Source: Pseudorhodoferax sp. Leaf267
GTDB lineage: Bacteria > Pseudomonadota > Gammaproteobacteria > Burkholderiales > Burkholderiaceae_C
Length of the DNA: 64,000 nucleotides
NCBI RefSeq assembly: GCF_001422405.1
Contig: NZ_LMMV01000001.1
Span: forward strand, 966,620 to 1,030,619
Reading direction: 5' to 3'
The notes below the pieces were generated by a model. That model was not told the DNA's origin. It was given only the letters and a program-made list of their open reading frames with translations, and made no database searches. A program made the position numbers and the translations under genes. Positions 21,916 to 37,570 of the stretch are shown in pieces; position 1 is the stretch's first letter; every line of letters starts with the position of its first letter.

Positions 21916-21992
21916 TGGTGCGGCTGGCAGGAATTGAACCCACGACCCCTTGGTTCGTAGCCAAGTACTCTATCCAACTGAGCTACAGCCGC
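21916..21992 (-). tRNA. tRNA-Arg(ACG)
   Basis: A 77-nt cloverleaf on the minus strand. The acceptor stem is GCGGCTG paired with CAGCCGC. The D-arm (GCTCAGTTGGATAGAGT) and the T-arm (GTGGGTTCAATTCC) are normal. The anticodon stem CTTGG/CCAAG carries loop CTACGAA, so the anticodon is ACG. The 3' CCA is encoded. A strong hairpin terminator follows at once and a TAGAAT -10 box precedes it. It is a single transcription unit. Confidence 0.97.
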
Positions 21993-22037: not shown

Positions 22038-23237
22038 TCAATGCGATGCAGAAACCACCACTGGAATCTCGGTCGCCGGCGGCGTGTTGCGGCTGCGGCC
22101 GCAGCGCACGATGCCGTCGATCATGACCATGCCCACGCCCGGGATATCGCCCAGCTGCACGCTCTCCAGCAGCGTGCGGCCGGCCGTGTGCTGGGCACGG
22201 TCCATGAACACGAAGTCGGCCGCGCGCCCCACCTCGATCAACCCACAGTTGAGCTTGCGGATCCTGGCGGTGTTGCCGGTAGCAAAGCAGAACACGAGCT
22301 CGGCCGGGATGTTGGCCAGGCTGGACAGCAGCGCCACCATGCGCAGCATGCCCAGCGGCTGCACGCCCGAGCCTGCCGGGCCATCCGTGCCCAGGATCAC
22401 GCGGTGCGGGCACTTGAGCTGCAGCGCGGCCTGCGCTGCGGCAATGGCTACCTTCTCGTTGCCGTTGTGCACGATCTCGATCGCGCGGCTGGACTTTTCG
22501 CAGAGCTCGCAGACATGTGCCTCGGGCAGCGAGGTGTGGCCGCCGTTGATGTGGCCGATGACGTCGGCATCGGCCTCCAGCACCACGTCCTTGTCGATCA
22601 GCCCCGAGCCAGGGATCGACGGCCCGCCGGTGTGGATCGTGCTCTGGATGCCGGCAGCACGTGCCCACTTGACCATGACGGCGGCTTCGGTGCCGCCCTT
22701 CACGGAGCCGAGCCCGATCTCGCCGAGCAGGCCCACGCCGGCTGCGGCCAGCTCCTTGAAGTCGCTCTCGACCATGCCCTTCTCGATGACGGGCGCGCCG
22801 GCCAACACCTTCACGCCGCCCGGGCGGAAGTTGTCGAACGCGCGCTGCGCCGTGATGGCCAGCGCCTTCAGGCCGACGATGTCCTTGGGCCGGCCCGGCA
22901 GGTGCACCTCGCCGGCCGAGATCATGGTGGTCACGCCGCCATTCATCGTCGACTCGATCCAGCCGAGCTGGTTCTGCCGCGGCGTCCAGTCGCCAAAGAC
23001 GGGGTGCACGTGGCTGTCGATCAGGCCCGGCGCGACGCAGGTCTGCCTGGCATCGATGACGGTGGTCGCGCCTTCGGTGTCGCAGTCCTTGAGCTTGCCG
23101 ACGGCGGTGATCAGGCCGTCGTGGATGACGATGGTGTCGGCTTCGAGGATGGGGCGGTCGATGTCGCCCGACAGCATCAGGCCGATGTTGCGGATGACGA
23201 CTTTGCCCGAGCTGGCGGTGGCGGCGGCTTCTGCCAT
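22038..23237 (-). CDS. ena: Enamidase (6-oxo-1,4,5,6-tetrahydronicotinate amidohydrolase)
   Basis: A 399-residue metal-dependent amidohydrolase. Similarity to the Eubacterium barkeri enamidase runs along the whole length: GDIDRPILEADTIVIHDGLI, the metal-binding DSHVHP, GGVTTMISAG, LPGRPKDIVGLKALAIT, HTGGPSIPGSG, ATGN and the C-terminal SRNTPPA. The enzyme opens the ring of 6-oxo-1,4,5,6-tetrahydronicotinate to 2-formylglutarate and ammonia. The ATG has a GGAG ribosome binding site. Its first 61 bases overlap the end of the tetR gene, so fpr-tetR-ena is one transcript, opposite hnr and the nicotinate oxidation genes. Confidence 0.9.
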   Translation of the reverse strand: MAEAAATASSGKVVIRNIGLMLSGDIDRPILEADTIVIHDGLITAVGKLKDCDTEGATTVIDARQTCVAPGLIDSHVHPVFGDWTPRQNQLGWIESTMNGGVTTMISAGEVHLPGRPKDIVGLKALAITAQRAFDNFRPGGVKVLAGAPVIEKGMVESDFKELAAAGVGLLGEIGLGSVKGGTEAAVMVKWARAAGIQSTIHTGGPSIPGSGLIDKDVVLEADADVIGHINGGHTSLPEAHVCELCEKSSRAIEIVHNGNEKVAIAAAQAALQLKCPHRVILGTDGPAGSGVQPLGMLRMVALLSSLANIPAELVFCFATGNTARIRKLNCGLIEVGRAADFVFMDRAQHTAGRTLLESVQLGDIPGVGMVMIDGIVRCGRSRNTPPATEIPVVVSASH

Positions 23238-23941
23238 GTTGGATCTCCGTGGGGGCTGGTGGTGTGGTTCTGCAATGGCTCGATCATGACGGTGCGCAGC
23301 ACGGCGTCGACCATGAAGGCTTCCCACCGCGCGAGCGATTCGGCGTCGTCGATGCGCTGGCCCAGGAACTCGGACAGCGTGAACCGGTTGGACTGCGGGA
23401 AATAGCCCAGCGCGGCAATCATCATGTAGACGTCGCGCACCGACACGTCGTCGCGGAACACGCCCTGCGCCACGCCGGCGGCCATCAGCAGCTGGAGCAC
23501 CGAGATCGCGGGCGACGAATACTGGTGCGCCGAACGCATCTTCACGATGTGCCGGCCTTGCAGCAGGTTCTCGTTGTTGAGCAGTGTGACGAACTCGGGG
23601 TGCTTCTGGTAGTAGCGGCAGACGAAGCGGACCACCGTCTTGAGCGATTCCACCGGCTGCGTCTCGTCCAGGGCCAGTTCGGACTCGGCCTCGTTCATGC
23701 GCCGGTAGATGTCCTCGATGACCGCGATGTACAGACCTTCCTTGCTACCGAAGTAGTAATAGATCATGCGGTCGTAGGACTTCGCGGCCTTGGAGATCTG
23801 GCCCACGCGGCCGCCGGCAAAGCCATGCTTGGCGAAGATCCGCGTGGCCGCGCGCAGCAGGTTGGCGCGCGAGACGATGACGGCCTGCTCGCGCACGCCG
23901 GGCTTGCGCGAACCTTCGGCACTCTTGGCAGCCCTGGGCAT
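23177..23941 (-). CDS. TetR family transcriptional regulator of the nicotinate locus
   Basis: A 254-residue TetR-type regulator. The DNA-binding helix-turn-helix is at residues ~20-65 (RANLLRAATRIFAKHGFAGG, then YYYFGSKEGLY). The C-terminal ligand-binding part resembles the TetR_C6-like group seen with pyrimidine and pyridine catabolism (CRYYQKHPEFVTLLNNEN). The ATG at 23941 is chosen at the onset of similarity. It lies 20 bases after fpr and overlaps ena by 61 bases. It likely represses the divergent promoters and is released by a pathway intermediate; the effector is unknown. Confidence 0.85.
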   Translation of the reverse strand: MPRAAKSAEGSRKPGVREQAVIVSRANLLRAATRIFAKHGFAGGRVGQISKAAKSYDRMIYYYFGSKEGLYIAVIEDIYRRMNEAESELALDETQPVESLKTVVRFVCRYYQKHPEFVTLLNNENLLQGRHIVKMRSAHQYSSPAISVLQLLMAAGVAQGVFRDDVSVRDVYMMIAALGYFPQSNRFTLSEFLGQRIDDAESLARWEAFMVDAVLRTVMIEPLQNHTTSPHGDPTWQKPPPPPARAKSSSATSA

Positions 23942-23961
23942 GCGCTGGGGAACGGCTCGGC

Positions 23962-24738
23962 CTACTGCTCGGCGAACGCGCGCTCGACGACGAAGTCGCC
24001 GGGCGTGGAGGTGTTGCCTTCCTTGAAGCCGCGCTCCTCCAGCAGACGCTTGAGGTCGCGCAGCATGGCCGGGCTGCCGCACAGCATCACGCGGTCCTCG
24101 GCGGCGTTGAGCTGCGGCAGTTGCAGGTCGTCGCAGAGCTTGCCGTTCACGATCAGGTCGGGGATGCGGCCCATGTTGCGGTAGGACTCGCGGGTGACCG
24201 TGGGGTAGTAGCGCAGCTTGCTGCTGACCAGTTCGCCCAGCACCTCGTGCGCGGGCAGGTGCTCGACCAGCATGTCGTGGTAGGCCAGCTCGTCGACCTG
24301 GCGCACACCATGCACCACGATGACCTGGTCGTAGCGGTCGTAGGTGTCAGGATCGCGCACGATGCTCAGAAATGGTGCCAAGCCGGTGCCGGTGCCGAAC
24401 AGATACAGGCGTTTGCCCGGCAGCAGGTAGTCGGTGACCAGGGTGCCGGTGGGCTTGCGGCCCACGACGATGGGGTCGCCAACTTTGATGTGCTGCAGGC
24501 GCGAGGTCAGCGGACCGTCAGGCACCTTGATGGACAAAAACTCCAGATGGTCTTCGTAGTTGGCGCTGGCAATGCTGTAGGCGCGCAGCAGCGGCTTGCC
24601 GTTCTCGCCACGCAGGCCAATCATCGTGAAGTGCCCGTTGGAGAACCGCAGCGAGGGGTCACGCGTGGTGGTGAAGCTGAACAGGCGGTCGGTCCAGTGG
24701 TGGACGGAGAGGACCTTCTCTTCGTTGAATGCGCTCAT
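23962..24738 (-). CDS. fpr: Ferredoxin-NADP reductase
   Basis: A 258-residue flavoprotein of the bacterial Fpr type. The FAD-binding motif is LLRAYSIASANYEDHLEF. The NADP domain starts at LYLFGTGTGLAPFLSIVRD, with MLCGSPAML and the C-terminal VVERAFAEQ end typical of subclass I enzymes. It exchanges electrons between NADPH and ferredoxin or flavodoxin. Being first in the transcript with tetR and ena, and divergent from 6-hydroxynicotinate reductase, it most likely feeds that iron-sulfur enzyme. No ferredoxin gene is in the locus. Confidence 0.9.
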   Translation of the reverse strand: MSAFNEEKVLSVHHWTDRLFSFTTTRDPSLRFSNGHFTMIGLRGENGKPLLRAYSIASANYEDHLEFLSIKVPDGPLTSRLQHIKVGDPIVVGRKPTGTLVTDYLLPGKRLYLFGTGTGLAPFLSIVRDPDTYDRYDQVIVVHGVRQVDELAYHDMLVEHLPAHEVLGELVSSKLRYYPTVTRESYRNMGRIPDLIVNGKLCDDLQLPQLNAAEDRVMLCGSPAMLRDLKRLLEERGFKEGNTSTPGDFVVERAFAEQ

Positions 24739-24852
24739 GTCGTTCGAACTGCTGCAAGAGTGAAAAACGGCCCGATTTTCCACCAGGCCATGGCTGTTCC
24801 TGGCGTCTGCGGCATGCAAGTTGCCGGCCCGGCTGGCTCTCGATCCGCGTGC

Positions 24853-24881
24853 TTGCGACCGATGCGCTTTTTCTGTAGCAT
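24853..24881 (+). promoter_or_regulatory. Predicted sigma-70 promoter of the hnr operon
   Basis: A TTGCGA -35 (24853-24858) and TAGCAT -10 (24876-24881) are separated by exactly 17 bases. Transcription would start near 24888, about 90 bases before the hnr ATG, inside the palindrome annotated next. Confidence 0.55.
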
Positions 24882-24887
24882 CGGCCG

Positions 24888-24906
24888 CACTCACGTTAAG
24901 TGAATG
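24888..24906. promoter_or_regulatory. Candidate TetR operator palindrome
   Basis: A 19-base imperfect palindrome with 7-base arms CACTCAC and GTGAATG (one mismatch) around GTTAA; the inner 13 bases TCACGTTAAGTGA have perfect arms. It sits at the predicted transcription start of hnr, a classic repressor position, in the gap between the divergent fpr-tetR-ena and hnr units. A wider repeat, GTAGCAT (24875-24881) and ATGCTAC (24904-24910), flanks it. Confidence 0.5.
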
Positions 24907-24977
24907 CTACATGAAACGCCACAGTGCGTCCATCGATCCCCACGATGACGGCGCGGTTGCCGAACCGAAAGAGCCCC

Positions 24978-26558
24978 ATGCTGAACGAGCACACCAAGAC
25001 CGACGGCCTGCCCGACGCCCCCGACCTCGTGATGCCCCAGGCGCTGGACCGCGCGCGGCCGCGCAACGAGCGCATGGCCAGCGACAAGGTCGAGTGCAAT
25101 GCCTGCCCCGTGCTGTGCCAGATCGGCCGCGGCCGCACCGGCGCCTGCGACCGCTATGCGAATGAAGAAGGTGTGCTGGTGCGCGTCGACCCGGTGGTGC
25201 TGCTGCAAAAGACGCTGGATGCCGAAGCGCTGCTGGTGCCGTTCACGGTGCGTGGCGAGGGCGACGAGGCGGCCCTGGTGCCAGCCTCCTCGGTGTTCGT
25301 CACCGGCATCGGCGCCTCCACCACCTACCCCGACTACAAGCCCGCGCCTTTCATCGTCGCCTCCGAAGCCGCCGGCGTGGACATGGTGACCGTGGTCACC
25401 GAGGGCATCTTCAGCTACTGCAGCCTGAAGGTGAAGATCGATACCGACCGTTGGCTGGGCCCGGAGCAGGCCAACGTGCGCTGCAAGGGCGAGGTCGTCG
25501 GCCACGTGACAACGGCCGAGTACGGCTCGCAGATGCTGTCGCTGGGCGGCGTGCACCACCTCACGGGCGGCAGCAAGAAGGAAGGCCGCGTCACGCTGGA
25601 GGTCATGCAGACGCTGGGCAACAAGAAGCCGCTCGAGCTCACCATCGACGGCGGTGCGCAGCTGCAGATCCAGGCCGGCCAGGCGCCCATCGTCAACGGC
25701 GTGCTGGAGCAGCGCATGCGCGTCGGCTGCGGCTCGGCCACGGTCGGCATCTTCGCGCGCCAGTTCGCAGGCGTCGCCGACGAGGTCATCGTGGTGGACG
25801 ACCACATCACCGGCGTGCTGACCGAGCACCAGGCCGGCCGCTGCCTGGACATGAAGCCGGCCGGCATCAAGGTGCGCGGACGCAAGTCGACCCCCGGCCG
25901 CTACTTCCAGGTGGCCAATCCCGGCACGGGCTGGGGCGGCACCGACATCGCCGATCCGCTGTCCATCATCGAGACCTGCGAGGCCGATGCGGCCTGGCCC
26001 GGCCTGCGCCTGCTGATGGTGTCGACCACCGGCGAGCATGCCGCCTGGTACGTGCTCGACGATGCGCTGGTGCCCCAGCCGCAGCCCATGCCCGAGGCCG
26101 TGGCCCAGGTCGTGGCGCGCATCGGCGAGAACTGCGAGCCCTCGCTGACCACCGTGCTGTTCCTGGGCGGCGCCGGCGGCAGCCTGCGCGCGGGCGTCAG
26201 CGAGAACCCGGTGCTGCTCACGCAGGCGATCAAGAAATCCGTCGTCAACGTCACCCTGGGTGGCGCGCCAGGCTATGTGTGGCCCGGCGGCGGCATCACG
26301 GTCATGGTGGATGTGATGCGCATGCCCGACAACAGCTTCGGCACCGTGCCCACGCCGGCCATCGTGGCGCCGCTGGAGTTCACGATGCCGCTGGCCGAGT
26401 ACCAACGCCTGGGCGGCCACATGGACCAGGTGCGCTCGCTGGCCGACACGCTCGCCCATGGTGCCTGGCACAACGATGGTGCACCGCGTGCACGCCGCAT
26501 GCTCGCGCCGGCGCCCGGCAATGGCTGGCCGATCGGACAGCCTCCGCAGCTGGGCTGA
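24978..26558 (+). CDS. hnr: 6-hydroxynicotinate reductase
   Basis: A 526-residue protein matching the family annotated as 6-hydroxynicotinate reductase, first defined in Eubacterium barkeri. A cysteine cluster (Cys40, Cys43, Cys47, Cys57 in VECNACPVLC..GACD) can hold an iron-sulfur cluster. Long conserved stretches follow (FVTGIGASTTYPDYKPAPF, GKVKID-like LKVKIDTDRW, GCGSATVGIFARQF, GGAPGYVWPGGGI). The enzyme reduces 6-hydroxynicotinate to 1,4,5,6-tetrahydro-6-oxonicotinate with ferredoxin. Upstream in-frame starts at 24924 and 24945 exist. Its position beside fpr and opposite ena supports the assignment. Confidence 0.82.
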   Translation: MLNEHTKTDGLPDAPDLVMPQALDRARPRNERMASDKVECNACPVLCQIGRGRTGACDRYANEEGVLVRVDPVVLLQKTLDAEALLVPFTVRGEGDEAALVPASSVFVTGIGASTTYPDYKPAPFIVASEAAGVDMVTVVTEGIFSYCSLKVKIDTDRWLGPEQANVRCKGEVVGHVTTAEYGSQMLSLGGVHHLTGGSKKEGRVTLEVMQTLGNKKPLELTIDGGAQLQIQAGQAPIVNGVLEQRMRVGCGSATVGIFARQFAGVADEVIVVDDHITGVLTEHQAGRCLDMKPAGIKVRGRKSTPGRYFQVANPGTGWGGTDIADPLSIIETCEADAAWPGLRLLMVSTTGEHAAWYVLDDALVPQPQPMPEAVAQVVARIGENCEPSLTTVLFLGGAGGSLRAGVSENPVLLTQAIKKSVVNVTLGGAPGYVWPGGGITVMVDVMRMPDNSFGTVPTPAIVAPLEFTMPLAEYQRLGGHMDQVRSLADTLAHGAWHNDGAPRARRMLAPAPGNGWPIGQPPQLG

Positions 26559-26566
26559 CAGCGTCC

Positions 26567-27436
26567 ATGGGCCCCACGCGCGACACCCTGCCCGGCGGCC
26601 GCGCGCATTTCCAGCATGGGCCGATCGATCTCGTCATCGGCGCCGAGGGCGACGCCGCAGCAGTGGCCTGCGCCCACGAAAGCGCCTGGGCACGTTTCGC
26701 CACCGTGCTGATGGAACTCGTGTCCGAACTGCCCACACTGCGCCAGCCCGTTGACGAACGCTGCCCGCTGCAAGGTGTGATTGCACGCCGCATGTGGTCG
26801 GCCTGCGCGCCGCACCGCGCACGCTTCATCACTCCCATGGCGGCCGTGGCCGGCGCCGTCGCGCAGGAGATCGCGGCTTGCTACGCGCGCCCCGGCATCG
26901 TGCGCGCCTGGGTCAACAACGGCGGCGACATCGCGCTGCACCTCGCGCCTGGTGCCCAGGTCCGGGTAGGTCTGTTCGCCGACCTGGCGCGCTTCGACGG
27001 GGCCACGTCGCGCGACGCCCTGCCGACCGATGCGCAGTTCAGCGTGACGGCCGACCTGCCCGTGCGCGGCATCGCCACCAGCGGCTGGCGTGGCCGGAGC
27101 TTCTCGCTGGGCATCGCCGACAGCGTGACCGTGCTCGCGCACGAAGCCGCCGCAGCCGACGCTGCCGCCAGCATGGTCGCCAATGCCGTCGATGTGGACG
27201 ACGCCCGCATCGTGCGGCGGCCGGCCAACACAATCAAGGACGACACCGATCTTGGCGCGCGCCTCGTCACCGTCGATGTGCCGCCACTGCCGCCGGGCTT
27301 GGTCGACCATGCGCTGGACGCCGGCCTCGCCCATGCCCAGGCGCTGCGCGCACAAGGCCTGATCTGGCATGCCGCGCTGACCTGCCAGGGCCGGTGGCGC
27401 AGCACCAGCGACACGATTGGTGCAGTAATTGCTTAA
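26567..27436 (+). CDS. UPF0280 family protein (ApbE-like fold)
   Basis: A 289-residue protein of family UPF0280, related to the ApbE/flavin transferase superfamily. Visible features are an IDLVIGAEGD strand, MAAVAGAVAQEIA, VNNGGDIALHL and a GIATSGWRGRSFSLGIADSVTVLA segment similar to the core of FMN transferases. The gene starts 8 bases after hnr, so the products are probably made together. Inference: it may attach or handle the flavin of 6-hydroxynicotinate reductase or of another enzyme in the route. A biochemical function has not been established for the family, as far as I know. Confidence 0.8.
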   Translation: MGPTRDTLPGGRAHFQHGPIDLVIGAEGDAAAVACAHESAWARFATVLMELVSELPTLRQPVDERCPLQGVIARRMWSACAPHRARFITPMAAVAGAVAQEIAACYARPGIVRAWVNNGGDIALHLAPGAQVRVGLFADLARFDGATSRDALPTDAQFSVTADLPVRGIATSGWRGRSFSLGIADSVTVLAHEAAAADAAASMVANAVDVDDARIVRRPANTIKDDTDLGARLVTVDVPPLPPGLVDHALDAGLAHAQALRAQGLIWHAALTCQGRWRSTSDTIGAVIA

Positions 27437-27509
27437 TGAAAGTACCTAAGGCCAACGCCCGCAATCGCCTCCACAATCCGCCCTGACTTCGTAACGCCAC
27501 GAGCCCGCC

Positions 27510-28094
27510 ATGCCCGCCCTGATCCGCAAACTGATCGTGCAAGTCGATGAAACCCGCCTCGAAATGGGGCAGCCCGTCATGCCGCCCGTGCGCCGTGCGC
27601 TGGCCATGGCGGTCATCGTGAATCCCTTCGCCGGCCGCTACGCCCAGAACCTGGACGAGCTCATCGCCATCGGCGAGGAACTGGGCGGCCTGCTCGGCGA
27701 CAAGTGCGTGGCCGCACTCGGCATCAGGCCCGCCGAGGCCGAGGGCTATGGCAAGGCCGCCATCGTCGGCGAAGCCGGCGAACTCGAACACGCGGCCGCG
27801 CTGCTGCATCCCAAGCTCGGCGCGCCGCTGCGCCGCGCGGTGGAGAAGGGCGCGGCCCTGGTCCCGTCGAGCAAGAAGATGGGCGGCATGGGCTGTGCGA
27901 TCGACGTGCCACTGGGCCACAAGGATGCGGCCTTCGTGCGCAGCCATTTCGATGCCATTGAGGCGCGCGTGTCCGATGCACCGCGCGCCAATGAGATCGT
28001 GGTCGCCGTAGCCGTCACGGTCGGCGGCCGGCCGCTGCCGCGCGTTGGCGGCCTGCAGGCGTCCGAGATCGAAGGCAAGGACGGCCTGCGTTGA
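27510..28094 (+). CDS. DUF1185 'amino acid synthesis' family protein
   Basis: A 194-residue protein of the AA_synth/DUF1185 family, whose known structures show a variant of the Bacillus-type chorismate mutase fold. Key stretches are VIVNPFAGRYAQNLDELI, IVGEAGELEHAAALLHP, GAALVPSSKKMGGMGCAIDVPL and a C-terminal PRVGG. No activity is established. Lying between the reductase genes and the uptake system, it is a candidate for a step after ring opening, such as 2-formylglutarate tautomerisation or decarboxylation. This is inference from context only. Confidence 0.82.
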   Translation: MPALIRKLIVQVDETRLEMGQPVMPPVRRALAMAVIVNPFAGRYAQNLDELIAIGEELGGLLGDKCVAALGIRPAEAEGYGKAAIVGEAGELEHAAALLHPKLGAPLRRAVEKGAALVPSSKKMGGMGCAIDVPLGHKDAAFVRSHFDAIEARVSDAPRANEIVVAVAVTVGGRPLPRVGGLQASEIEGKDGLR

Positions 28095-28126
28095 TTCAGT
28101 TTCCATCGTTCCCAAGGAGTCTCTCG

Positions 28127-29335
28127 ATGAAGTCCATGCGTCCTGTGTTCAGCGCAGCCTCGGCCCTTGCGCTGGCCGCCCTCATTCCCGCGCACGCCCA
28201 GGGCGTGATCAAGATCGGCGAGATCAACAGCTACAAGGCCCAGCCAGCGTTTCTGGAGCCCTACAAGAAGGGCATGGAACTGGCCGTGGACGAGATCAAC
28301 GCGGCCGGTGGCGTGAACGGCAAGAAGATCGAGCTCATCATGCGCGACGACAACGGCAGCCCCGGCGACACCGTGCGCATGGCCGAGGAACTGGTCTCGC
28401 GCGAAAAGGTCGACATCCTGGCCGGCGCCTTCCTGTCGAACACCGGCCTGGCGCTGGCCGACTTCGCCAAACAGAAGAAGTTCTTCTACCTGGCCGGCGA
28501 GCCGCTCACCGACAAGATGACCTGGCAGGGCGGCAACCAGTACACCTTCCGCCTGCGCCCCGGCACCTACATGCAGGCCGCGATGCTGGTGCCCGAGGCG
28601 GCCAAGCTCAAGAAGAAGCGCTGGGCCATCGTCTACCCCAACTACGAGTACGGCCAGTCGGCCACGGCCGCGTTCAAGCAGCTGCTCAAGGCCGCGCAGC
28701 CCGATGTGGAGTTCGTCGCCGAGCAGGCCACGCCGCTGGGCAAGGTCGACGCGGGCAGCGTGGCGCAGGCCCTGGCCGATGCCAAGCCCGACGCCATCTT
28801 CAACGTGCTGTTCGGCGCCGACCTGACCAAGTTCGTGCGCGAGGGCAACACGCGCGGCCTGTTCAAGGACCGCACGGTGGTGAGCGTGCTGACCGGCGAG
28901 CCCGAGTACCTGGACCCGCTGAAGGACGAAGCCCCTGACGGCTGGATCGTCACCGGCTACCCCTGGTACTCGATCAAGACGCCCGAGCACGCCGCCTTCG
29001 AGAAGGCCTACCAGGCCAAGTTCAAGGACTACCCGCGCCTGGGCTCGGTGGTGGGCTACAGCATGATCAAGTCGGCCGCAGTGGGCATCGCCAAGGCTAA
29101 GAGCACCGAGACCGACAAGCTGGTCGCCGCCTTCAAGGGCCTGCAGGTCGATTCGCCGTTCGGCAAGATCACCTACCGCGCCGAAGACCACCAGTCGACC
29201 ATGGGCGCCTACGTGGGCCGCACCAAGAACGACGGCGGCAAGGGCGTGATGGTGGACTACGTCTACCTCGATGGCGCCGATGCACGCTTCCAGCCTTCGG
29301 CCGCCGACGTCAAGAAGTCGCGCGCGACGGACTGA
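28127..29335 (+). CDS. LIV-type ABC transporter substrate-binding protein
   Basis: A 402-residue periplasmic binding protein of the branched-chain amino acid (type 1) class. A signal peptide (VFSAASALALAALIPAHAQG) precedes the mature start VIKIGEINSY. Typical motifs include GMELAVDEINAAGGVNGKKI and RDDNGSPGDTVRMAEEL. An AAGGAG ribosome binding site (28114-28119) lies 7 bases before the ATG. Its location in the nicotinate operon suggests it binds nicotinate, nicotinamide or a related pyridine carboxylate, as opposed to leucine. Confidence 0.9.
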   Translation: MKSMRPVFSAASALALAALIPAHAQGVIKIGEINSYKAQPAFLEPYKKGMELAVDEINAAGGVNGKKIELIMRDDNGSPGDTVRMAEELVSREKVDILAGAFLSNTGLALADFAKQKKFFYLAGEPLTDKMTWQGGNQYTFRLRPGTYMQAAMLVPEAAKLKKKRWAIVYPNYEYGQSATAAFKQLLKAAQPDVEFVAEQATPLGKVDAGSVAQALADAKPDAIFNVLFGADLTKFVREGNTRGLFKDRTVVSVLTGEPEYLDPLKDEAPDGWIVTGYPWYSIKTPEHAAFEKAYQAKFKDYPRLGSVVGYSMIKSAAVGIAKAKSTETDKLVAAFKGLQVDSPFGKITYRAEDHQSTMGAYVGRTKNDGGKGVMVDYVYLDGADARFQPSAADVKKSRATD

Positions 29336-29416
29336 TGCGCCGGGCTGCGGTGCCATCCGCACCGCAGCTCGTTCCCCCTCCCCCGCAGCGGCGCGCTGCC
29401 AGCAGAAGAATCCCCC

Positions 29417-31296
29417 ATGAGCTTTTCCGGACTGATCGTCCAACTCCTCAACGGACTGGCCTCGGCGTCGTCGCTGTTCCTGGTCGCGGCCGGGCTGTCG
29501 CTGATCTTCGGCGTCACGCGCATCGTCAACTTCGCGCACGGCTCCTTCTTCATGGTGGGCATCTACACGGCCTACACGCTGGTGGACCGGTTCGGCAGCA
29601 CGCTGGGCTTTTGGCCGTCGCTGGTGCTGGCGGCCATTGCGGTCGGCGTGCTGGGCGCCATCGTCGAGGTCGTGCTGCTGCGCCGCATCTACAAGGCACC
29701 CGAGCTGTTCCAGCTGCTGGCCACCTTCGCGCTGGTGCTGGTCATCAAGGACGCCTCGCTCTGGCTCTGGGGCCCTGACGAACTGCTGGGCCCGCGCGCA
29801 CCGGGCCTGCGCGGCTCGGTCGAGATCCTGGGCCGGCAGTTCCCGAGCTACGACCTGTTCCTGATCGCCATTGGCCCCATCGTGCTCGGCGCGGTCTGGC
29901 TGCTGCTCACGCGCACGCGCTTCGGCACGCTGGTGCGCGCCGCCACGCAAGACCGCGAGATGGTCAGCGCGCTGGGCGTGAACCAGGCCTGGCTGTTCAC
30001 GGCCGTCTTCGCGCTAGGCGCATTGCTGGCCGGCCTGGGCGGTGCGCTGCAATTGCCGCGCGAGCCCGCCACGCTGGAGATGGACCTGCACACCATCGGC
30101 GCGGCCTTCGTGGTCGTGGTGGTAGGCGGCATGGGTTCGCTGCCGGGTGCCTACCTGGCGGCCCTGCTGGTGGCCGAACTCAAAGCCGTCTGCATCTGGC
30201 TGGGCGTGGTCGACATTCTGGGCGTCAGCGTGTCGTTCTCCAAGCTCACGCTGATGGTGGACTTCCTCGTGATGGCCGCCGTGCTGGTCTGGCGCCCCTG
30301 GGGCCTGCTGGGCAGGCCGCAGGCGCCCAGCCGCTACGTGGGCATGCCCGAGGCGCCGCTGCGCCAGCCCGGCAAGGCCTACCTGGTGGCCGCCGCCGTG
30401 TTCGGCCTGCTGCTGGCCGCCGCGCCCTTGCTCACGGCGCAGTCGCCCTACTTCACCGTGCTGCTGATCGACCTCTTGATCGCCGCGCTGTTCGCCACCA
30501 GCCTGCACTTCATCATGGGGCCGGCCGGCATGCATTCCTTCGGCCACGCGGCCTACTTCGGCCTGGGCGCCTATGCGGCCGCACTGCTGGTGCGTACGAG
30601 CGGCATGCCGATGGAACTCGCGCTCGTGGTCGCCCCGCTGTTCGCCGCGCTCGGCGCCTTCGTCTACGGCTGGTTCGCCGTGCGGCTGTCGGGCGTGTAC
30701 CTGGCCATGCTCACGCTGGCTTTCGCGCAGATCACCTGGGCCATCACCTACCAGTGGGACACGTTCACGGGCGGCAGCAACGGGCTCACGGGCGTGTGGC
30801 CCTCGGCCGCGTTCGCCGACAAGCGCATGTACTACTGGCTCACGCTGGTGCTCGTGGGCCTGGGCGTGTGGTGGCTGCGCCGCGTGCTGTTCTCGCCCTT
30901 CGGCTACGCGCTGCGCGCGGGCCGCGACTCGGTGCTGCGCGCCGACGCCATCGGCATCGACGTGAAGCGCATGCAGTGGATGGCCTTCATCGTGGCCGGC
31001 ACTGTCGCGGGCCTGGCCGGCGCGCTGTTCGCCTTCTCCAAGGGCAGCATCTCGCCCGAATCCATGAACGTGACCAAGTCCATCGACGGCCTGGTCATGG
31101 TGCTGCTGGGCGGCATCCAGACGCTCGCCGGCCCCGTCGTCGGCGCCGTCACCTTCACCTGGCTGCACGACACCGTGGCACGCAACACCGACTACTGGCG
31201 CGCCATGCTGGGCGGCATCATCTTGCTGCTGGTGCTGCTGTTCCCGCAGGGCATCGCGGGCTTTGCCAAGCAACTGTTCGAACGCAAGGCAAAACC

Positions 31297-31300
<4 letters not shown>
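29417..31300 (+). CDS. Fused LivH-LivM type ABC transporter permease
   Basis: A 627-residue protein that joins both permease subunits of a LIV-type transporter. Residues 1-~300 match LivH (GLSLIFGVTRIVNFAHGSFF and VVVVGGMGSLPGAYLAALLV). Residues ~325-627 match LivM (FIMGPAGMHSFGHAAYFGLGA, then MVLLGGIQTLAGPVVGA). Each half has the cytoplasmic loop that contacts an ATPase. There are about 16 membrane segments in all. The stop overlaps the next ATPase start (ATGA), giving one expression unit. Confidence 0.93.
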
Positions 31301-32063
<763 letters not shown>

Positions 32064-32067
<4 letters not shown>

Positions 32068-32789
32068 CGACCTTGCTCGAAGCCAAGGGCCTACGCGCCT
32101 GGTACGGCGCCGCGCAGATCCTGTACGACGTGAACCTCACGGTGCGCCGCGGCGAGGTGGTGGCACTCATGGGCCGCAACGGCGCGGGCAAGTCCACCAC
32201 GCTCAAGACCATCATGGGCATGCTGGCCAAGCGCGCCGGCAGCATCCATTTTCTGGACCACGACATCTCGCGCACCGAGCCGCACCATGCCTCGCGCCTG
32301 GGGCTGGGCTTCGTGCCGGAAGACCGCCGCGTGTTCACCGACCTCACCGTCATGGAGAACCTGGAGGTCGGCAAGCAGCCCGCACGCCGCTGGGCCGACG
32401 GCACGGACGCGCCTCTGTGGACCCCCGAGAAGCTGTTCAAGCTGTTCCCCAACCTGGGCGAGATGCCGAACCGCCCCGGCGGCCGCATGAGCGGTGGCGA
32501 GCAGCAGATGCTGACGGTGGCGCGCACCTTGATGGGCAACCCCTACTTGGTGCTGCTGGACGAGCCGTCCGAAGGCGTGGCGCCCGTCATCGTCGAGCAG
32601 ATGGCGCACATGATCCTGGCGCTCAAAGCGCAGGGCGTGTCCATCCTGCTGTCCGAGCAGAACATGCATTTCGCTGAACTCGTGAGCGACCGCGCCTACG
32701 TGCTGGAGAAGGGGCAGATCCGCTTCGAGGGCACGATGGCCGAACTCGCCGCCAATGAAGAGGTGCGCCGCGCGTACCTCAGCGTCTGA
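32064..32789 (+). CDS. LIV-type ABC transporter ATP-binding protein (LivF-like)
   Basis: A 241-residue ATPase with Walker A GRNGAGKSTTLK, ABC signature MSGGEQQML and Walker B LVLLDEPSEGVAP. It also carries the LivF-type FVPEDRRVFTDLTVMENL segment. It completes the five-domain transporter made of binding protein, fused permease and two ATPases. It overlaps the LivG-like gene by 4 bases and is followed after 25 bases by the nicotinamidase gene, tying transport to nicotinamide use. Confidence 0.93.
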
Positions 32790-32814
32790 TTTGTTCCACG
32801 ACCGGGAGCTTTCC

Positions 32815-33528
32815 ATGCAACGCAGAACCGTCCTCCATTCCGCCGCCGCGCTGGGCCTCTTCGCACTGGCGCCGCCGCTGTTCGCCGCCGGCAAGCTCAA
32901 GCCCGGCGCCCATGCCGCGCTGATCGTGGTCGATGTGCAGAACTGTTTCATCGACGGCGGCACGCTGCCCGTCAAAGGTGGCGCCGAGGTCGTGCCCGTC
33001 ATCAACAAGCTGTCGACCGCGTTCCAGAACATCGTGGTCACGCAGGACTGGCACACGCAGGGCCATGCCTCCTTCGCCAGCGCGCACGGCAGCAAGAAGC
33101 CCTTCGACAGCATCAAGCTCAACTATGGCAACCAGGTGCTGTGGCCCGACCACTGCGTGCAGGGCACGGATGACGCGGCGCTGCACAAGGACTTGAAGCT
33201 GCCCACCACGCAACTCATCATCCGCAAGGGCTACAACAAGGGCGTGGACAGCTACTCCGCCTTCCAGGAAGCCGACCGCAAGACCGTGACGGGCCTGGCC
33301 GGCTACCTCAAGGCGCGCGGCATCAAGACCGTCTACATCACGGGCCTGGCCACCGACTTCTGCGTGGCCTGGACGGCGCTGGACGCGCGCAAGGCCGGCT
33401 TCGAGGCCTACGTGATCGAAGACGCCACGCGCGCCATCGACCTCAACGGCTCGCTGGCCGCGGCCTGGAAGCAGATGGCGGCGCAGGGCGTCAAGCGCAT
33501 CCAGTCGGGCGACGTGGAAGGCGCGTGA
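32815..33528 (+). CDS. pncA: Exported nicotinamidase (isochorismatase family)
   Basis: A 237-residue cysteine hydrolase of the PncA group. The catalytic triad is complete: Asp40 (VVDVQNCF), Lys138 (IIRKGYNKG) and Cys183 (GLATDFCVAW). Metal ligands of nicotinamidases are present: Asp78 and His80 in QDWH, and His113. Unusually, it begins with a twin-arginine-like leader (MQRRTVLHSAAALGLFALAP, ending FAAG), implying a periplasmic enzyme. It would turn nicotinamide into nicotinate and ammonia. A GGGAG site precedes the ATG. Its stop overlaps the nicA GTG start. Without export it would act in the cytoplasm like classical PncA. Confidence 0.88.
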   Translation: MQRRTVLHSAAALGLFALAPPLFAAGKLKPGAHAALIVVDVQNCFIDGGTLPVKGGAEVVPVINKLSTAFQNIVVTQDWHTQGHASFASAHGSKKPFDSIKLNYGNQVLWPDHCVQGTDDAALHKDLKLPTTQLIIRKGYNKGVDSYSAFQEADRKTVTGLAGYLKARGIKTVYITGLATDFCVAWTALDARKAGFEAYVIEDATRAIDLNGSLAAAWKQMAAQGVKRIQSGDVEGA

Positions 33529-34004
33529 CCTCTGGTTTCTCGCTTCACGTCAACGGCAGCGCGCGGCAATTCGACGTCCCGCGCCAGACCACGCTGCTGC
33601 AGCTGCTGCGCAACGACTGCGGCCTGAACGGCCCCAAGTACGGTTGCGGCCTGGGCCAGTGCGGCAGCTGCACGGTGCTGGTGGACGGCGTGGCTGCGCG
33701 CAGCTGCGTGGTCCCGGCCCACGGCATGGCCGGCCGCCACATCACCACGCTGGAAGGCCTGGGCACGCGCGAGGCGCCGCACCCGGTGCAACAAGCCTTC
33801 ATCGACGCGCAGGCCACGCAGTGCGGCTATTGCCTGAACGGCATGGTCATGACCACGGTCGCGCTGCTGCAGCGCGTGCCCCACCCCACCGAGGCGCAGG
33901 CGCGCGCCGAGCTGTCGCACAACCTGTGCCGCTGCGGCACGCACCTGGAGATCCTGGACGCGGTGCAGCGCGCGGCCCAGTTGAGCGCCGAGGCGGCAGG
34001 CTGA
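33525..34004 (+). CDS. nicA: Nicotinate dehydrogenase small subunit, 2x[2Fe-2S]
   Basis: A 159-residue iron-sulfur subunit of the xanthine oxidase family. The plant-type cluster is bound by Cys41, Cys46, Cys49 and Cys61 (CGLGQCGSC..C). The helical domain binds a second cluster through Cys100, Cys103, Cys135 and Cys137 (QCGYC and NLCRCG). The length agrees with Pseudomonas NicA. It passes electrons from the molybdenum site of NicB to the hemes. The start is GTG, overlapping the nicotinamidase stop, and its stop overlaps the nicB ATG. Confidence 0.92.
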   Translation: MTSGFSLHVNGSARQFDVPRQTTLLQLLRNDCGLNGPKYGCGLGQCGSCTVLVDGVAARSCVVPAHGMAGRHITTLEGLGTREAPHPVQQAFIDAQATQCGYCLNGMVMTTVALLQRVPHPTEAQARAELSHNLCRCGTHLEILDAVQRAAQLSAEAAG

Positions 34005-37000
34005 TGCGTGCAGAAGGCGGGGACCTGTCGCGCGCTGCACTGCGTGCCGCGCCCGGCGTGCTGCTGGTGCTGCGCGACGTGCCGCCGCCGCCCGCGCCCT
34101 CGCCCGGCCAGCCGCCGGCCGTGGCCGGCAACCCGGCCGAGGGCCCGGAGGTGTTGCTGGCCGTCTGGGACGACGGCAGCGTCACGGGCTTCGCCGGCCA
34201 TGTGGACCTGGGCACCGGCCTGCGCACGGCGCTGACGCAGATCGTCGCGGAAGAGCTGGACCTGTCGCCGGATCAAGTCCGCATGGTCATGGGCAGCACG
34301 GCCAGCGCGCCGAACCAGGGCGCGACGATCGCCAGCGCCTCGATCCAGATCCACGCCCTGCCGCTGCGCCAAGCCGCGGCCCAGGCGCGTGCCTGGCTGC
34401 GGGCGAATGCGTTGGACGGCCGGCATGTCGAGCTGATGCTGGACCCGCTGGTGGCGATCAAACCCATGGCCGACTACCGCCTCGTCGGCCAGTCCACGCC
34501 GCGCGTGGACATCCCGGCCAAAGTGCATGGCGAACTCGTGTTCGTGCACGACATGCGCGTGCCCGGCATGCTGCACGGCCGCGTCGTGCGCCCGCCCTAC
34601 GCGGGGCTGGACGCGGGCGAGTTCGTCGGCAACACGCTGGAGGCAGTGGACGAAGCCTCCATCGCCCACATCGCCGGCATCGTGGCCGTGGTCGTGCAGC
34701 GCGACTTCGTGGGCGTGGTCGCCGAGCGCGAGGACCAGGCCGAGGCCGCCATGGCGGCACTCACCGTGCGCTGGAAACCCTGGCCCGGCATGGCCGGCGT
34801 GGACCGCACCGAGCAGGCCCTGCGCGCCAACTCGTCCACGCGCCGGCTGCTGCTGGAGCAGGGCCAGGTGGACCAGGCCATCGCCGGTGCCGACCAGCAC
34901 ATGTTGCGCACCTACGTCTGGCCCTACCAGATGCACGCGTCCATCGGCCCGTCCTGCGCGCTGGCCGACTGGCACGGCGAGCAGGCCGAAGGGCCGGTCG
35001 CCACCGTCTGGGCCGGCACGCAGAGCCCGCATGTGCTGCGCGCCGACCTGGCGCTGCTGACGGGTGTGCCGGACGCGCGCATCGACCTCGTGCGCATGGA
35101 GGCGGCCGGCTGCTACGGCCGCAACGGCGCCGACGATGTGGCGGCCGACGCGCTGCTGCTCGCGCGTGCGGTCGGCAAGCCCGTGCGCGTGCAGCTCACG
35201 CGCGCGCAGGAGAACGCCTGGGAGCCCAAGGGCGCGGCGCAGCTCATGCAGGTGGACGGCGGGCTGAACGCCGACGGCTCGCCCGCCGCCTACGACTTCC
35301 AGACCTCCTACCCCAGCAATGGCGCGCCCACGCTGGCGCTGCTGCTCACGCGCACGGTCGAGCCTGTCTCCAAGGCTTTCGAAATGGGGGACCGCACGGC
35401 CGTCCCTCCCTATGCCTACGAACACCTGCGCGTGGCCGCGAATGACATGGCGCCCATGCTGCGCGCGTCGTGGCTGCGCGGCGTGTCGGCGCTTCCGAAC
35501 TCGTTCGCGCACGAGTCCTACATCGACGAGCTGGCGACGGCGGCCGGCGTGGACCCGGTGGCCTACCGGCTGCAGTACCTGAAAGACGCACGCGCCGCCG
35601 AACTCGTGCGCGCGACAGCCGACAAGGCGGGCTGGCAAGCGCACACCGCACCGCAACAGCAACCGGCCGAAGGCGACATCCTCAAAGGCCAGGGCTTCGC
35701 CTACGCGCGCTACATCCACAGCAAGTTCCCCGGCTTCGGCGCGGCCTGGGCAGCGTGGGTGGCCGATGTGGAAGTGAACCAGCGCACGGGCGAGGTCCAT
35801 GTGAGCCGCATCGTCGTGGGCCACGACGCAGGGCTGATGGTCAACCCGGCCGGCGTGCAGCACCAGGTGCACGGCAACGTGCTGCAGACCACGAGCCGGG
35901 CGCTGAAGGAGCGCGTCGAGGTCGAGCCGACTACGGGCATCACGCTGAACCGCGAATGGGGCAGCTACCCGATCCTGAGCTTTCGCGAGGTGCCCGTCGT
36001 CGAGGTGATGCTGATGCCGCGGCCCGGCGAGGCGCCGCTGGGCGCGGGCGAGTCGGCCTCGGTGCCGGGCACGGCGGCGATCGCGAACGCGATCTTCGAT
36101 GCGACGGGCGTGCGGTTTCGGGAGCCGCCGTTCACGCCGGAGGTGGTCCGCGCAGGGCTGGGCTTACTCCCTCTCCCCTCTGGGGAGAGGGCTGGGGTGA
36201 GGGGCGGCGGCGGTGGATACGGCGATGGTGCCGCGAACGCCGCGCACCCTCACCCCAACCGTCTCCCAGAGGGAGAGGGAGCCAGATGGCCGCGTCGGCG
36301 CAAGCCGGTGTGGGCGACCGCGTTGGCCTTCGTGCTCGGTGGCGTGGCGACAGTCGCCGGCCTCGCTGGCTGGCGCAGCGAGATCGCCCCAGTCGCACGC
36401 CCGGCCGCCGCCACCTACAGCGCCGCCACCATCGAACGCGGCCGCCTGCTGGCCGCGGCCGGCGACTGCGTGGTCTGCCACACCGCCCCCGGGGGCCTGG
36501 CCAACACCGGCGGCCGCGCCATGGACACGCCCTTCGGCACCGTCTACACGACCAACCTCACGCCAGACCCCGACACCGGCCTCGGCCGCTGGTCGCTCGC
36601 CGCCTTCCAGCGTGCGATGCGCGAAGGCATCTCGCGCGACGGCCGCCACCTGTACCCGGCCTTCCCGTACACCGCGTTCACGAAGATGACGGAAGAGGAC
36701 CTGACCGCGGTCTACGCCTACCTCATGGCGCAGCCCGCCGTGGCGCACCAGCCGCCGGTGACGCAGCTGCCCTTCCCGTTCGGTCTGCGCCCGCTGCTGG
36801 CCGGCTGGAATGCGCTGTATCTGGACCAAGGCCCTGTAGCCACCGAACCAACGCAGACACCTGAATGGAACCGCGGCGCCTACCTGGTCAACAGCGTGGG
36901 CCACTGCAGCGCCTGCCACACGCCGCGCAATGCGCTGGGCGCCGAGCGAGGCGGCAGTGCCTTCCTGTCAGGTGCGGTGATCGATGGCTGGGAAGCGCCC

Positions 37001-37570
37001 GCCCTGACCGCGCTGTCCAAAGCCCCCGTGCCCTGGACGCAACAGGCCTTCTACGACTACCTGCGCCACGGCCACAGCCGCGAGCACGGCGCGGCCAACG
37101 GCCCGATGGCGCCCGTGGTGCAGGAACTGGCCGCGCTGCCGGATGCCGACATCCAGGCCATGGCCACCTACCTGGCCTCGTTGAACCCCGCACGCGCCCC
37201 CCAACCCGTGACAGCGGCAGCGGCGTTGCCCAGCCCCACGCAGCGCCTGTTCGAGAACGCCTGCGGCGCCTGCCACCACGACGGCGATGGCCCCAAGCTG
37301 CTGGGCCTGAACCTGCCGCTGGCCCTGTCCACCAAGCTGCACAGCGACCGGCCCGACAACCTGCTGCGCGTGCTGCTGGAAGGCGTGCGCGAGGCCGCCG
37401 GCCCTGAGGTCGGCTTCATGCCGGCCTTTGCCGACAACCTGTCGGACGCGCAGATTGCCGAACTCGCCGGCTACCTGCGCAGCCGCTACGCGCCCAGCCG
37501 GCCGGCCTGGCAGGGCCTGCAGCAACGTGCCGCCGCGTTGCGCGCGACGCCCACGCACGCGGCACACTGA
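34004..37570 (+). CDS. nicB: Nicotinate dehydrogenase large subunit: molybdopterin domain fused to triheme cytochrome c
   Basis: A 1188-residue fusion. Residues 1-~720 form the molybdenum hydroxylase part, with the catalytic glutamate in PLGAGESASVPG (Glu683). A linker (722-760) is encoded by a palindromic repeat. One transmembrane helix (~775-795) is followed by a cytochrome domain with three heme c motifs: CVVCH (822), CSACH (968) and CGACH (1087). Layout and length match Pseudomonas NicB. With NicA it hydroxylates nicotinate to 6-hydroxynicotinate and sends electrons to the respiratory chain through the periplasmic hemes. It needs the molybdenum cofactor, whose synthesis genes are not here. 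Confidence 0.92.
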   Translation: MRAEGGDLSRAALRAAPGVLLVLRDVPPPPAPSPGQPPAVAGNPAEGPEVLLAVWDDGSVTGFAGHVDLGTGLRTALTQIVAEELDLSPDQVRMVMGSTASAPNQGATIASASIQIHALPLRQAAAQARAWLRANALDGRHVELMLDPLVAIKPMADYRLVGQSTPRVDIPAKVHGELVFVHDMRVPGMLHGRVVRPPYAGLDAGEFVGNTLEAVDEASIAHIAGIVAVVVQRDFVGVVAEREDQAEAAMAALTVRWKPWPGMAGVDRTEQALRANSSTRRLLLEQGQVDQAIAGADQHMLRTYVWPYQMHASIGPSCALADWHGEQAEGPVATVWAGTQSPHVLRADLALLTGVPDARIDLVRMEAAGCYGRNGADDVAADALLLARAVGKPVRVQLTRAQENAWEPKGAAQLMQVDGGLNADGSPAAYDFQTSYPSNGAPTLALLLTRTVEPVSKAFEMGDRTAVPPYAYEHLRVAANDMAPMLRASWLRGVSALPNSFAHESYIDELATAAGVDPVAYRLQYLKDARAAELVRATADKAGWQAHTAPQQQPAEGDILKGQGFAYARYIHSKFPGFGAAWAAWVADVEVNQRTGEVHVSRIVVGHDAGLMVNPAGVQHQVHGNVLQTTSRALKERVEVEPTTGITLNREWGSYPILSFREVPVVEVMLMPRPGEAPLGAGESASVPGTAAIANAIFDATGVRFREPPFTPEVVRAGLGLLPLPSGERAGVRGGGGGYGDGAANAAHPHPNRLPEGEGARWPRRRKPVWATALAFVLGGVATVAGLAGWRSEIAPVARPAAATYSAATIERGRLLAAAGDCVVCHTAPGGLANTGGRAMDTPFGTVYTTNLTPDPDTGLGRWSLAAFQRAMREGISRDGRHLYPAFPYTAFTKMTEEDLTAVYAYLMAQPAVAHQPPVTQLPFPFGLRPLLAGWNALYLDQGPVATEPTQTPEWNRGAYLVNSVGHCSACHTPRNALGAERGGSAFLSGAVIDGWEAPALTALSKAPVPWTQQAFYDYLRHGHSREHGAANGPMAPVVQELAALPDADIQAMATYLASLNPARAPQPVTAAAALPSPTQRLFENACGACHHDGDGPKLLGLNLPLALSTKLHSDRPDNLLRVLLEGVREAAGPEVGFMPAFADNLSDAQIAELAGYLRSRYAPSRPAWQGLQQRAAALRATPTHAAH
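36167..36281. repeat. Inverted pair of REP-like palindromes inserted in nicB
   Basis: Two copies of a ~37-base GC-rich element face each other: 36167-36204 (CTCCCTCTCCCCTCTGGGGA..) and 36245-36281 (its near reverse complement ending GGGAGAGGGAG), with ~40 bases between them. Each copy is itself a hairpin. This matches the widespread proteobacterial REP/BIME type, normally intergenic. Here it is read in frame as PLPSGERAGVRG and HPHPNRLPEGEG between the molybdenum and heme domains. Confidence 0.85.

What the first reader, a model, noticed from the sequence alone, without database searches (positions are those of the whole stretch)
22038..37570. Reductive nicotinate catabolism locus in an apparently aerobic betaproteobacterium
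The locus combines NicAB hydroxylase genes of the aerobic type with enamidase and 6-hydroxynicotinate reductase known from the anaerobe Eubacterium barkeri. Seen directly: the ena motifs, the hnr cysteine cluster, the nicA and nicB cofactor motifs and the linkage. Established: the Eubacterium route runs through tetrahydro-6-oxonicotinate to 2-formylglutarate, and a reductive aerobic version was reported for Azorhizobium caulinodans. Inferred: this strain oxidises the ring with NicAB through cytochromes, then reduces it. The downstream fate of 2-formylglutarate is not encoded here.
Basis: partly seen in the sequence, partly recalled or inferred. Interest (0 to 1): 0.72.

Follow-up and report, generated by a model that had tools for sequence, protein, structure and literature searches.

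The report
Reductive vitamin B3 (nicotinate) degradation locus
A betaproteobacterium whose nearest named relative is Pseudorhodoferax carries a gene cluster that predicts breakdown of nicotinamide and nicotinate by first oxidising and then reducing the ring; the pathway type is already on record, but a small unexplained gene that accompanies the ring reductase in nearly every genome checked may be a helper that finishes that enzyme.

Summary
Minus strand: enamidase (ena), TetR regulator, ferredoxin-NADP reductase-like fpr. Plus strand: 6-hydroxynicotinate reductase (hnr), UPF0280 protein, DUF1185 protein, ABC importer, nicotinamidase, nicA, nicB with cytochrome c domains. It is not new in kind: Shettigar 2012 (PMC3511419) describes such a cluster in Azorhizobium, Bradyrhizobium and Rhodopseudomonas, and GenBank/RefSeq records already name hnr. 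UPF0280 (COG2122, ApbE flavin-transferase-like fold, role unsettled) was found in exactly the hnr-positive genomes of two samples (24 of 24, one by a contig-end fragment; 21 of 21), plus one weak extra hit, and follows hnr in 79 of 80 contig loci. It stays where hydroxylase or ring opener differ. Hnr is recalled to carry a covalent flavin, and this genome shows no ApbE match, so a dedicated maturation factor is plausible; but the usual ApbE target motif and catalytic His are absent. Also found: an operator-like repeat with fixed spacing in 57 of 63 fpr-hnr regions, and hydantoinase-type genes in six ena-less loci.

The parts
22038..23237 (-). ena, enamidase (399 aa): predicted to hydrolyse tetrahydro-6-oxonicotinate to 2-formylglutarate and ammonia
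   Evidence: 2VUN enamidase E=1.6e-105; Pfam Amidohydro_1
23252..23941 (-). TetR-family regulator
   Evidence: PF00440 and PF17938; nearest NCBIfam model RutR, 50 bits against cut-off 368
23962..24738 (-). fpr, ferredoxin-NADP reductase-like; possible electron supply for Hnr
   Evidence: PF00175/PF00970; NF008178 153.6 bits against cut-off 390; within 1.5 kb upstream of hnr in 62 of 80 loci
24874..24911 (.). operator-like inverted repeat TGTAG-N28-CTACA in the fpr/hnr divergent promoter region
   Evidence: same 38-bp span in 57 of 63 fpr-hnr regions, window included; absent in that exact form from the nearest named relative L076
24978..26558 (+). hnr, 6-hydroxynicotinate reductase (526 aa), with CX2CX3CX9C Fe-S-like motif
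   Evidence: alignment A1, 17 sequences; annotated homologues; in 24 of 150 family genomes
26567..27436 (+). UPF0280/COG2122 protein, ApbE-like fold; proposed Hnr maturation factor
   Evidence: NF003322 399.7 bits, cut-off 290; model pLDDT 91.4; ApbE fold matches; co-occurrence with hnr
27510..28094 (+). DUF1185 / 'amino acid synthesis' PF06684 protein, function unknown
   Evidence: PF06684 E=6e-71; PDB 2qtp E=4.8e-86
28127..29335 (+). ABC importer, periplasmic binding protein
   Evidence: PF13458 E=6.7e-73
29417..31300 (+). ABC importer, fused double permease
   Evidence: PF02653, two stretches
31297..32067 (+). ABC importer ATPase, LivG type
   Evidence: PF00005, PF12399 (longer ORF scanned)
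32064..32789 (+). ABC importer ATPase, LivF type
   Evidence: PF00005
32815..33528 (+). nicotinamidase with a signal-peptide-like N terminus (ORF opens at 32755; start at 32815 and signal judged by eye)
   Evidence: NF008623 181.5 bits, cut-off 174; 2wt9 nicotinamidase E=5.1e-84
33525..34004 (+). nicA, 2Fe-2S subunit of nicotinate dehydrogenase
   Evidence: PF00111, PF01799; 65% identity to the NicA-type protein of L175
34004..37570 (+). nicB, molybdopterin subunit with C-terminal cytochrome c domains
   Evidence: PF20256, PF02738, PF00034 (3 stretches); 56% end to end to the NicB-type protein of L175

Best explanation
A gene cluster, probably TetR-regulated, for use of nicotinamide and nicotinate by the reductive 6-hydroxynicotinate route. 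Nicotinamide is deamidated, NicAB hydroxylates nicotinate at C6 and passes electrons to the cytochrome chain, Fpr with an unlinked ferredoxin reduces Hnr, Hnr makes 1,4,5,6-tetrahydro-6-oxonicotinate, and Ena opens it to 2-formylglutarate and ammonia. UPF0280 probably serves Hnr, perhaps in its maturation; DUF1185 is unassigned. Shown: gene content, homology, synteny, co-occurrence. Inferred: substrates, electron flow, regulation, maturation.
For: Enamidase match to 2VUN. Hnr homologues annotated as such and 7 cysteines invariant in 17 sequences. NicAB 65%/56% to a pair beside annotated nic-type genes. Nicotinamidase over cut-off. Synteny. Enamidase (E up to 1e-60) in 21 of the 24 hnr-positive family genomes, one of them (G078) with an in-frame stop. 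NicX not detected in own genome (query works). Published growth of SG-6C on nicotinate with transient 6-hydroxynicotinate and an Hnr-containing cluster (PMC3511419).
Against: No experiment on this strain. Related molybdenum hydroxylases act on many compounds, so the substrate rests on homology and context. Hnr is not assigned by any profile library used, and its fold model was poor (pLDDT 61.7). Three flavin monooxygenases resembling the L175 one occur elsewhere in the genome (28-35% identity), though without NicX. The NicX control record is an 82% match, so a distant NicX could be missed. Genes for using 2-formylglutarate were not sought.
Confidence: 0.88

Rival explanations
1. NicAB feeds the classical maleamate route and hnr/ena serve another ring compound.
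For: NicAB is 65%/56% identical to a pair beside an annotated 2,5-dihydroxypyridine dioxygenase and a flavin monooxygenase in a Pseudomonas plasmid, with a like cluster in Pantoea; flavin monooxygenases at 28-35% in the own genome.
Against: NicX not found in the own genome while the same query finds an 82% match in Pantoea; NicAB sits in the hnr block here and in many relatives.
Confidence: 0.05
2. The locus degrades a related N-heterocycle, not nicotinate; Hnr reduces another hydroxypyridine carboxylate.
For: Relatives keep hnr but differ in hydroxylase type and ring opener, so Hnr may serve more than one pathway.
Against: Nicotinamidase in this operon, nicotinate phosphoribosyltransferase beside the cluster in L165, and the cluster reported in nicotinate-growing SG-6C (PMC3511419).
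Confidence: 0.07
3. UPF0280 is a pathway enzyme or sulfur carrier, not an Hnr maturation factor.
For: COG2122 is needed for homocysteine synthesis in Desulfovibrio, and a persulfide role has been proposed (PMC5764234 passages; PMC12068725 passages). No ApbE-type target motif in 65 Hnr rows; the ApbE His aligns to Leu and the residues after it are missing.
Against: It follows hnr rather than enamidase or hydroxylase type; no sulfur step is expected in this pathway; ApbE-like fold.
Confidence: 0.5

Closest known systems
Nicotinate cluster of Azorhizobium caulinodans, Bradyrhizobium, R. palustris and SG-6C (PMC3511419; passages and section 13 seen)
   Different: Betaproteobacterial here; nicotinamidase, fpr and TetR in the block. 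Gene-by-gene comparison with its figure was not possible (figures not held)
Eubacterium barkeri nicotinate fermentation (Alhapel 2006, recalled; paper not held)
   Same: Hnr and enamidase steps; solved enamidase 2VUN
   Different: NicAB with cytochrome c domains; the later fermentation genes were not seen in the block
P. putida KT2440 type nic cluster (recalled; clusters of that kind read in L175, L176)
   Same: NicA and NicB
   Different: No nicX-type gene in the block, and NicX not detected in the genome
COG2122/UPF0280 of homocysteine synthesis (PMC5764234, passages seen)
   Same: Same protein family (name COG2122 for UPF0280 is recalled; NF003322 also rings weakly in two methanogens)
   Different: Here it goes with Hnr; DUF39 (PF01837) was found in 0 of 299 phylum genomes

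Membership tests
Reductive nicotinate (Hnr/Ena) cluster | Enamidase homologue | tested here: met
   2VUN E=1.6e-105
Reductive nicotinate (Hnr/Ena) cluster | Hnr homologue with conserved cysteines | tested here: met
   not compared with the E. barkeri protein itself
Reductive nicotinate (Hnr/Ena) cluster | Enzyme activity and tetrahydro-6-oxonicotinate intermediate | not testable with these tools
   needs assay
NicAB nicotinate dehydrogenase | 2Fe-2S subunit plus molybdopterin subunit carrying cytochrome c domains | tested here: met
Maleamate-type nic pathway | NicX 2,5-dihydroxypyridine dioxygenase in the genome | tested here: not met
   query works
ApbE flavin transferase (for UPF0280) | ApbE fold | tested here: met
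   Foldseek: ranks 1-2 are 2o34 (DUF375), ranks 3-41 all ApbE/Ftp/FmnB entries, E 1.3e-4 to 3.6e-2, TM-scores 0.3-0.55
ApbE flavin transferase (for UPF0280) | Pfam PF02424 over cut-off | tested here: not met
   14.6 bits, cut-off 25.6
ApbE flavin transferase (for UPF0280) | Metal-site Asp and Thr in the AD..T stretch (roles recalled) | tested here: inconclusive
   weak hhalign (probability 11%, E=0.0026) puts D198 and position 202 there; D198 invariant, position 202 Thr in 90% or more of 32 rows but Ser in the window
ApbE flavin transferase (for UPF0280) | HxIDPxTG stretch with catalytic His (role recalled) | tested here: not met
   His aligns to Leu and 11 following residues are missing
ApbE flavin transferase (for UPF0280) | Target motif D..[ST][GSA]A[ST] in the partner (recalled) | tested here: not met
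   0 of 65 Hnr rows, the window counted twice
DUF39/COG1900 relative (for Hnr) | Sequence similarity to PF01837 | tested here: not met
   no PF01837 match in 17 members at E up to 10; kinship by fold could not be tested with the poor model

The most novel reading that the evidence does not exclude
UPF0280/COG2122 is a dedicated maturation factor for 6-hydroxynicotinate reductase, most boldly an atypical ApbE-fold flavin transferase that installs Hnr's covalent flavin by a chemistry without the canonical His or target motif. If so, a like role, rather than sulfur delivery, may underlie its requirement in homocysteine synthesis in methanogens and sulfate reducers.
Probability: 0.35. Interest if true: 0.72.

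Novelty: new member of a known kind. Interest (0 to 1): 0.45.

Why it matters
The useful new lead is the near-perfect pairing of Hnr with UPF0280. The role of COG2122 in homocysteine synthesis is unsettled in the passages I saw, and how Hnr gets its covalent flavin (recalled) is unknown to me; a two-gene pair in ordinary proteobacteria would make both questions directly testable.

Tried and rejected
Maleamate route: NicX not found (query works). Hnr as a DUF39/COG1900 relative, suggested to me by the shared COG2122 partner: no PF01837 match in 17 Hnr rows; 0 of 299 phylum genomes carry PF01837, so no sequences were at hand for a profile comparison; left open. Hnr fold: model pLDDT 61.7, best PDB match E=2.3; uninformative. 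Hnr profile against PDB: best 1jr1 (IMP dehydrogenase) E=0.044, not relied on. Weak GcvT C-terminal barrel signal in 17 of 17 Hnr rows (best E=0.0036; for the window protein under cut-off), not relied on. ApbE target motif in Hnr: 0 of 65 rows. Paper searches. 'UPF0280' gave 0 papers; judged by listings alone, none of the others joins UPF0280 to Hnr; most subscription papers are not held.
Full report
WHAT IS THERE. The window lies in a 6.53 Mb assembly and is 70% G+C. The nearest named Hnr is from Pseudorhodoferax aquiterrae, 88% identical, with the same gene block. Left to right: tRNA-Arg 21916-21992; minus-strand ena, TetR and fpr; a divergent promoter region of about 240 bp; plus-strand hnr, UPF0280, DUF1185, ABC importer genes, nicotinamidase, nicA and nicB. 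Past nicB lies a minus-strand ORF with a Wzz match. Several calls read hnr from 24984 or 24981; the ATG is at 24978.

WHAT THE ENZYMES ARE. Enamidase is secure: 380 residues aligned to 2VUN at E=1.6e-105. Hnr has no library model over cut-off but matches proteins named 6-hydroxynicotinate reductase in GenBank/RefSeq plasmid records. In 17 sequences C39, C42, C46, C56, C147, C250 and C385 (A1 numbering) are invariant. NicA and NicB are 65% and 56% identical to the pair of Pseudomonas sp. BYT-5, which stands beside an annotated 2,5-dihydroxypyridine dioxygenase and a flavin monooxygenase. NicAB thus looks like a module used with either downstream route. The nicotinamidase passes its NCBIfam cut-off and best matches solved nicotinamidase 2wt9.

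WHICH ROUTE. NicX gave 0 matches in the own genome; the same query found an 82% match in a Pantoea plasmid, so close relatives would be seen, distant ones perhaps not. Three flavin monooxygenases at 28-35% identity exist, which alone do not make the maleamate route. The reductive route is the better reading. Genes for use of 2-formylglutarate were not searched for.

PRIOR KNOWLEDGE. PMC3511419 (passages and section 13; [quoted passage not shown] SG-6C degraded nicotinate with transient 6-hydroxynicotinate. PMC9304392 (passages) mentions the route. The papers on E. barkeri and on Azorhizobium biochemistry are not held and are recalled. Plasmid records show nearly the same order in a Comamonadaceae bacterium, there without an annotated nicotinamidase and with two DUF1185 genes, and a variant order in Sulfitobacter.

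HOW WIDESPREAD. Hnr was found in 24 of 150 family genomes and 21 of 299 phylum genomes. 26 of 72,556 plasmid records carry a match.

THE UPF0280 LINK. NF003322 matched 24 of 150 family genomes, the same 24 as hnr by handle; G104 is a 27-residue match at a contig end, below cut-off. In the phylum sample it matched 22 of 299: the same 21 as hnr and a weak extra (G436, 22.1 bits, below cut-off). Coordinates put UPF0280 within 500 bp of hnr in 21 of 21. It follows hnr in 20 of 20 family loci and 79 of 80 contig loci; the miss, L107, has 145 bp after hnr. The 79 gaps between alignment ends run from 5 to 555 bp. The samples overlap in organisms and share descent, so these counts are not independent. 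In L166 another small gene stands between. Enamidase (E up to 1e-60) was in 22 of 150 genomes: 21 hnr-positive and G105, which lacks hnr; hnr-positive G046, G090 and G101 lack it. PF06684 (DUF1185) was in 35 of 150, so it is less specific. UPF0280 therefore tracks Hnr rather than the hydrolase.

WHAT UPF0280 MIGHT DO. The AlphaFold model is good (pLDDT 91.4). Foldseek ranks 2o34 (DUF375) first, then only ApbE, Ftp and FmnB flavin transferases from rank 3 to 41; 11 matches have E of 0.001 or less and TM-scores to ApbE are modest, 0.3-0.55. By sequence 2o34 is the only credible PDB match (E=4.3e-4 single, 1.1e-7 as profile). hhalign to E. coli Ftp gave E=0.0026 but probability only 11%; it aligns the GG, TSG and AD stretches, puts Leu at the His and lacks the 11 residues that follow HVID. 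The own genome has no PF02424 match (the same search rings in 7 of 14 control genomes). Alhapel 2006 is recalled as reporting a covalently bound flavin in Hnr. Together this makes a flavin-related maturation role plausible. Against it: no ApbE-type target motif in 65 Hnr rows, no catalytic His, and published work that favours sulfur traffic and doubts that the homology reaches the flavin-binding region (PMC5764234 passages; PMC12068725 passages). I put the novel reading at 0.35.

VARIANTS. Instead of cytochrome-linked NicAB, L095, L053-L055 and 5 of 7 phylum loci have a flavin subunit, next to a fused Fe-S/molybdopterin protein where I looked; Sulfitobacter and Fuscovulum are annotated likewise. 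In 107 loci (20 family, 80 contig, 7 phylum; partly the same organisms) 86 show ena only, 6 hyuA only, none both, 15 neither. Of the 15, L077, L116, L165 and L168 were read over the full stretch, the rest are short or cut. The hydantoinase pair of L163 is nearest to caprolactamase CapAB among NCBIfam models (497 and 312 bits, cut-off 1000), a lactam-opening enzyme, so it may replace enamidase.

REGULATION. Between fpr and hnr, TGTAG-N28-CTACA occurs with the same spacing in 57 of 63 regions (window plus 62 loci), in the window at 24874-24911 and nowhere else in it. A looser spacing (14-34) also gave 57 of 63, against a shuffle mean of 0.06 and maximum 1 in 100 shuffles. The regions are related by descent, so the shuffles overstate the case. 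Six regions lack it, among them L076, the nearest named relative, and none of the 18 loci without fpr within 1.5 kb of hnr has it. TetR binding is inferred.

VERDICT. Real and correctly read, ordinary in kind, with one good testable lead.

Noticed in passing
L163:7822-12148 (same genome as L053); L054, L164, L166, L169, L170, L178: Hydantoinase/oxoprolinase (caprolactamase-like) genes stand with hnr where enamidase was not found; a possible ATP-dependent ring opener for tetrahydro-6-oxonicotinate.
   Followed up: partly
window 24874-24911: Inverted repeat with fixed 38-bp span in the fpr/hnr promoter region, 57 of 63 regions.
   Followed up: partly
window 27510-28094; L037-L051 (subset), L173, L174: A second DUF1185-like ORF stands between UPF0280 and DUF1185 in 9 of 10 family loci read; congener L036 and the window have one; two copies also in L173 and L174.
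   Followed up: partly
L171, ena-like 11302-12498 and the DUF1185 match just after it: Genome G105 has no hnr match but has a 40% enamidase-like gene beside a PF06684 match, a flavin monooxygenase and an aldehyde dehydrogenase, hinting that DUF1185 goes with amide or lactam hydrolysis.
   Followed up: no
window 34004-37570: NicB lacks about 31 residues (after residue 136) that the Pseudomonas sp. BYT-5 NicB has.
   Followed up: no
window 21916-21992: tRNA-Arg gene directly next to the end of ena; no sign of integration was sought.
   Followed up: no
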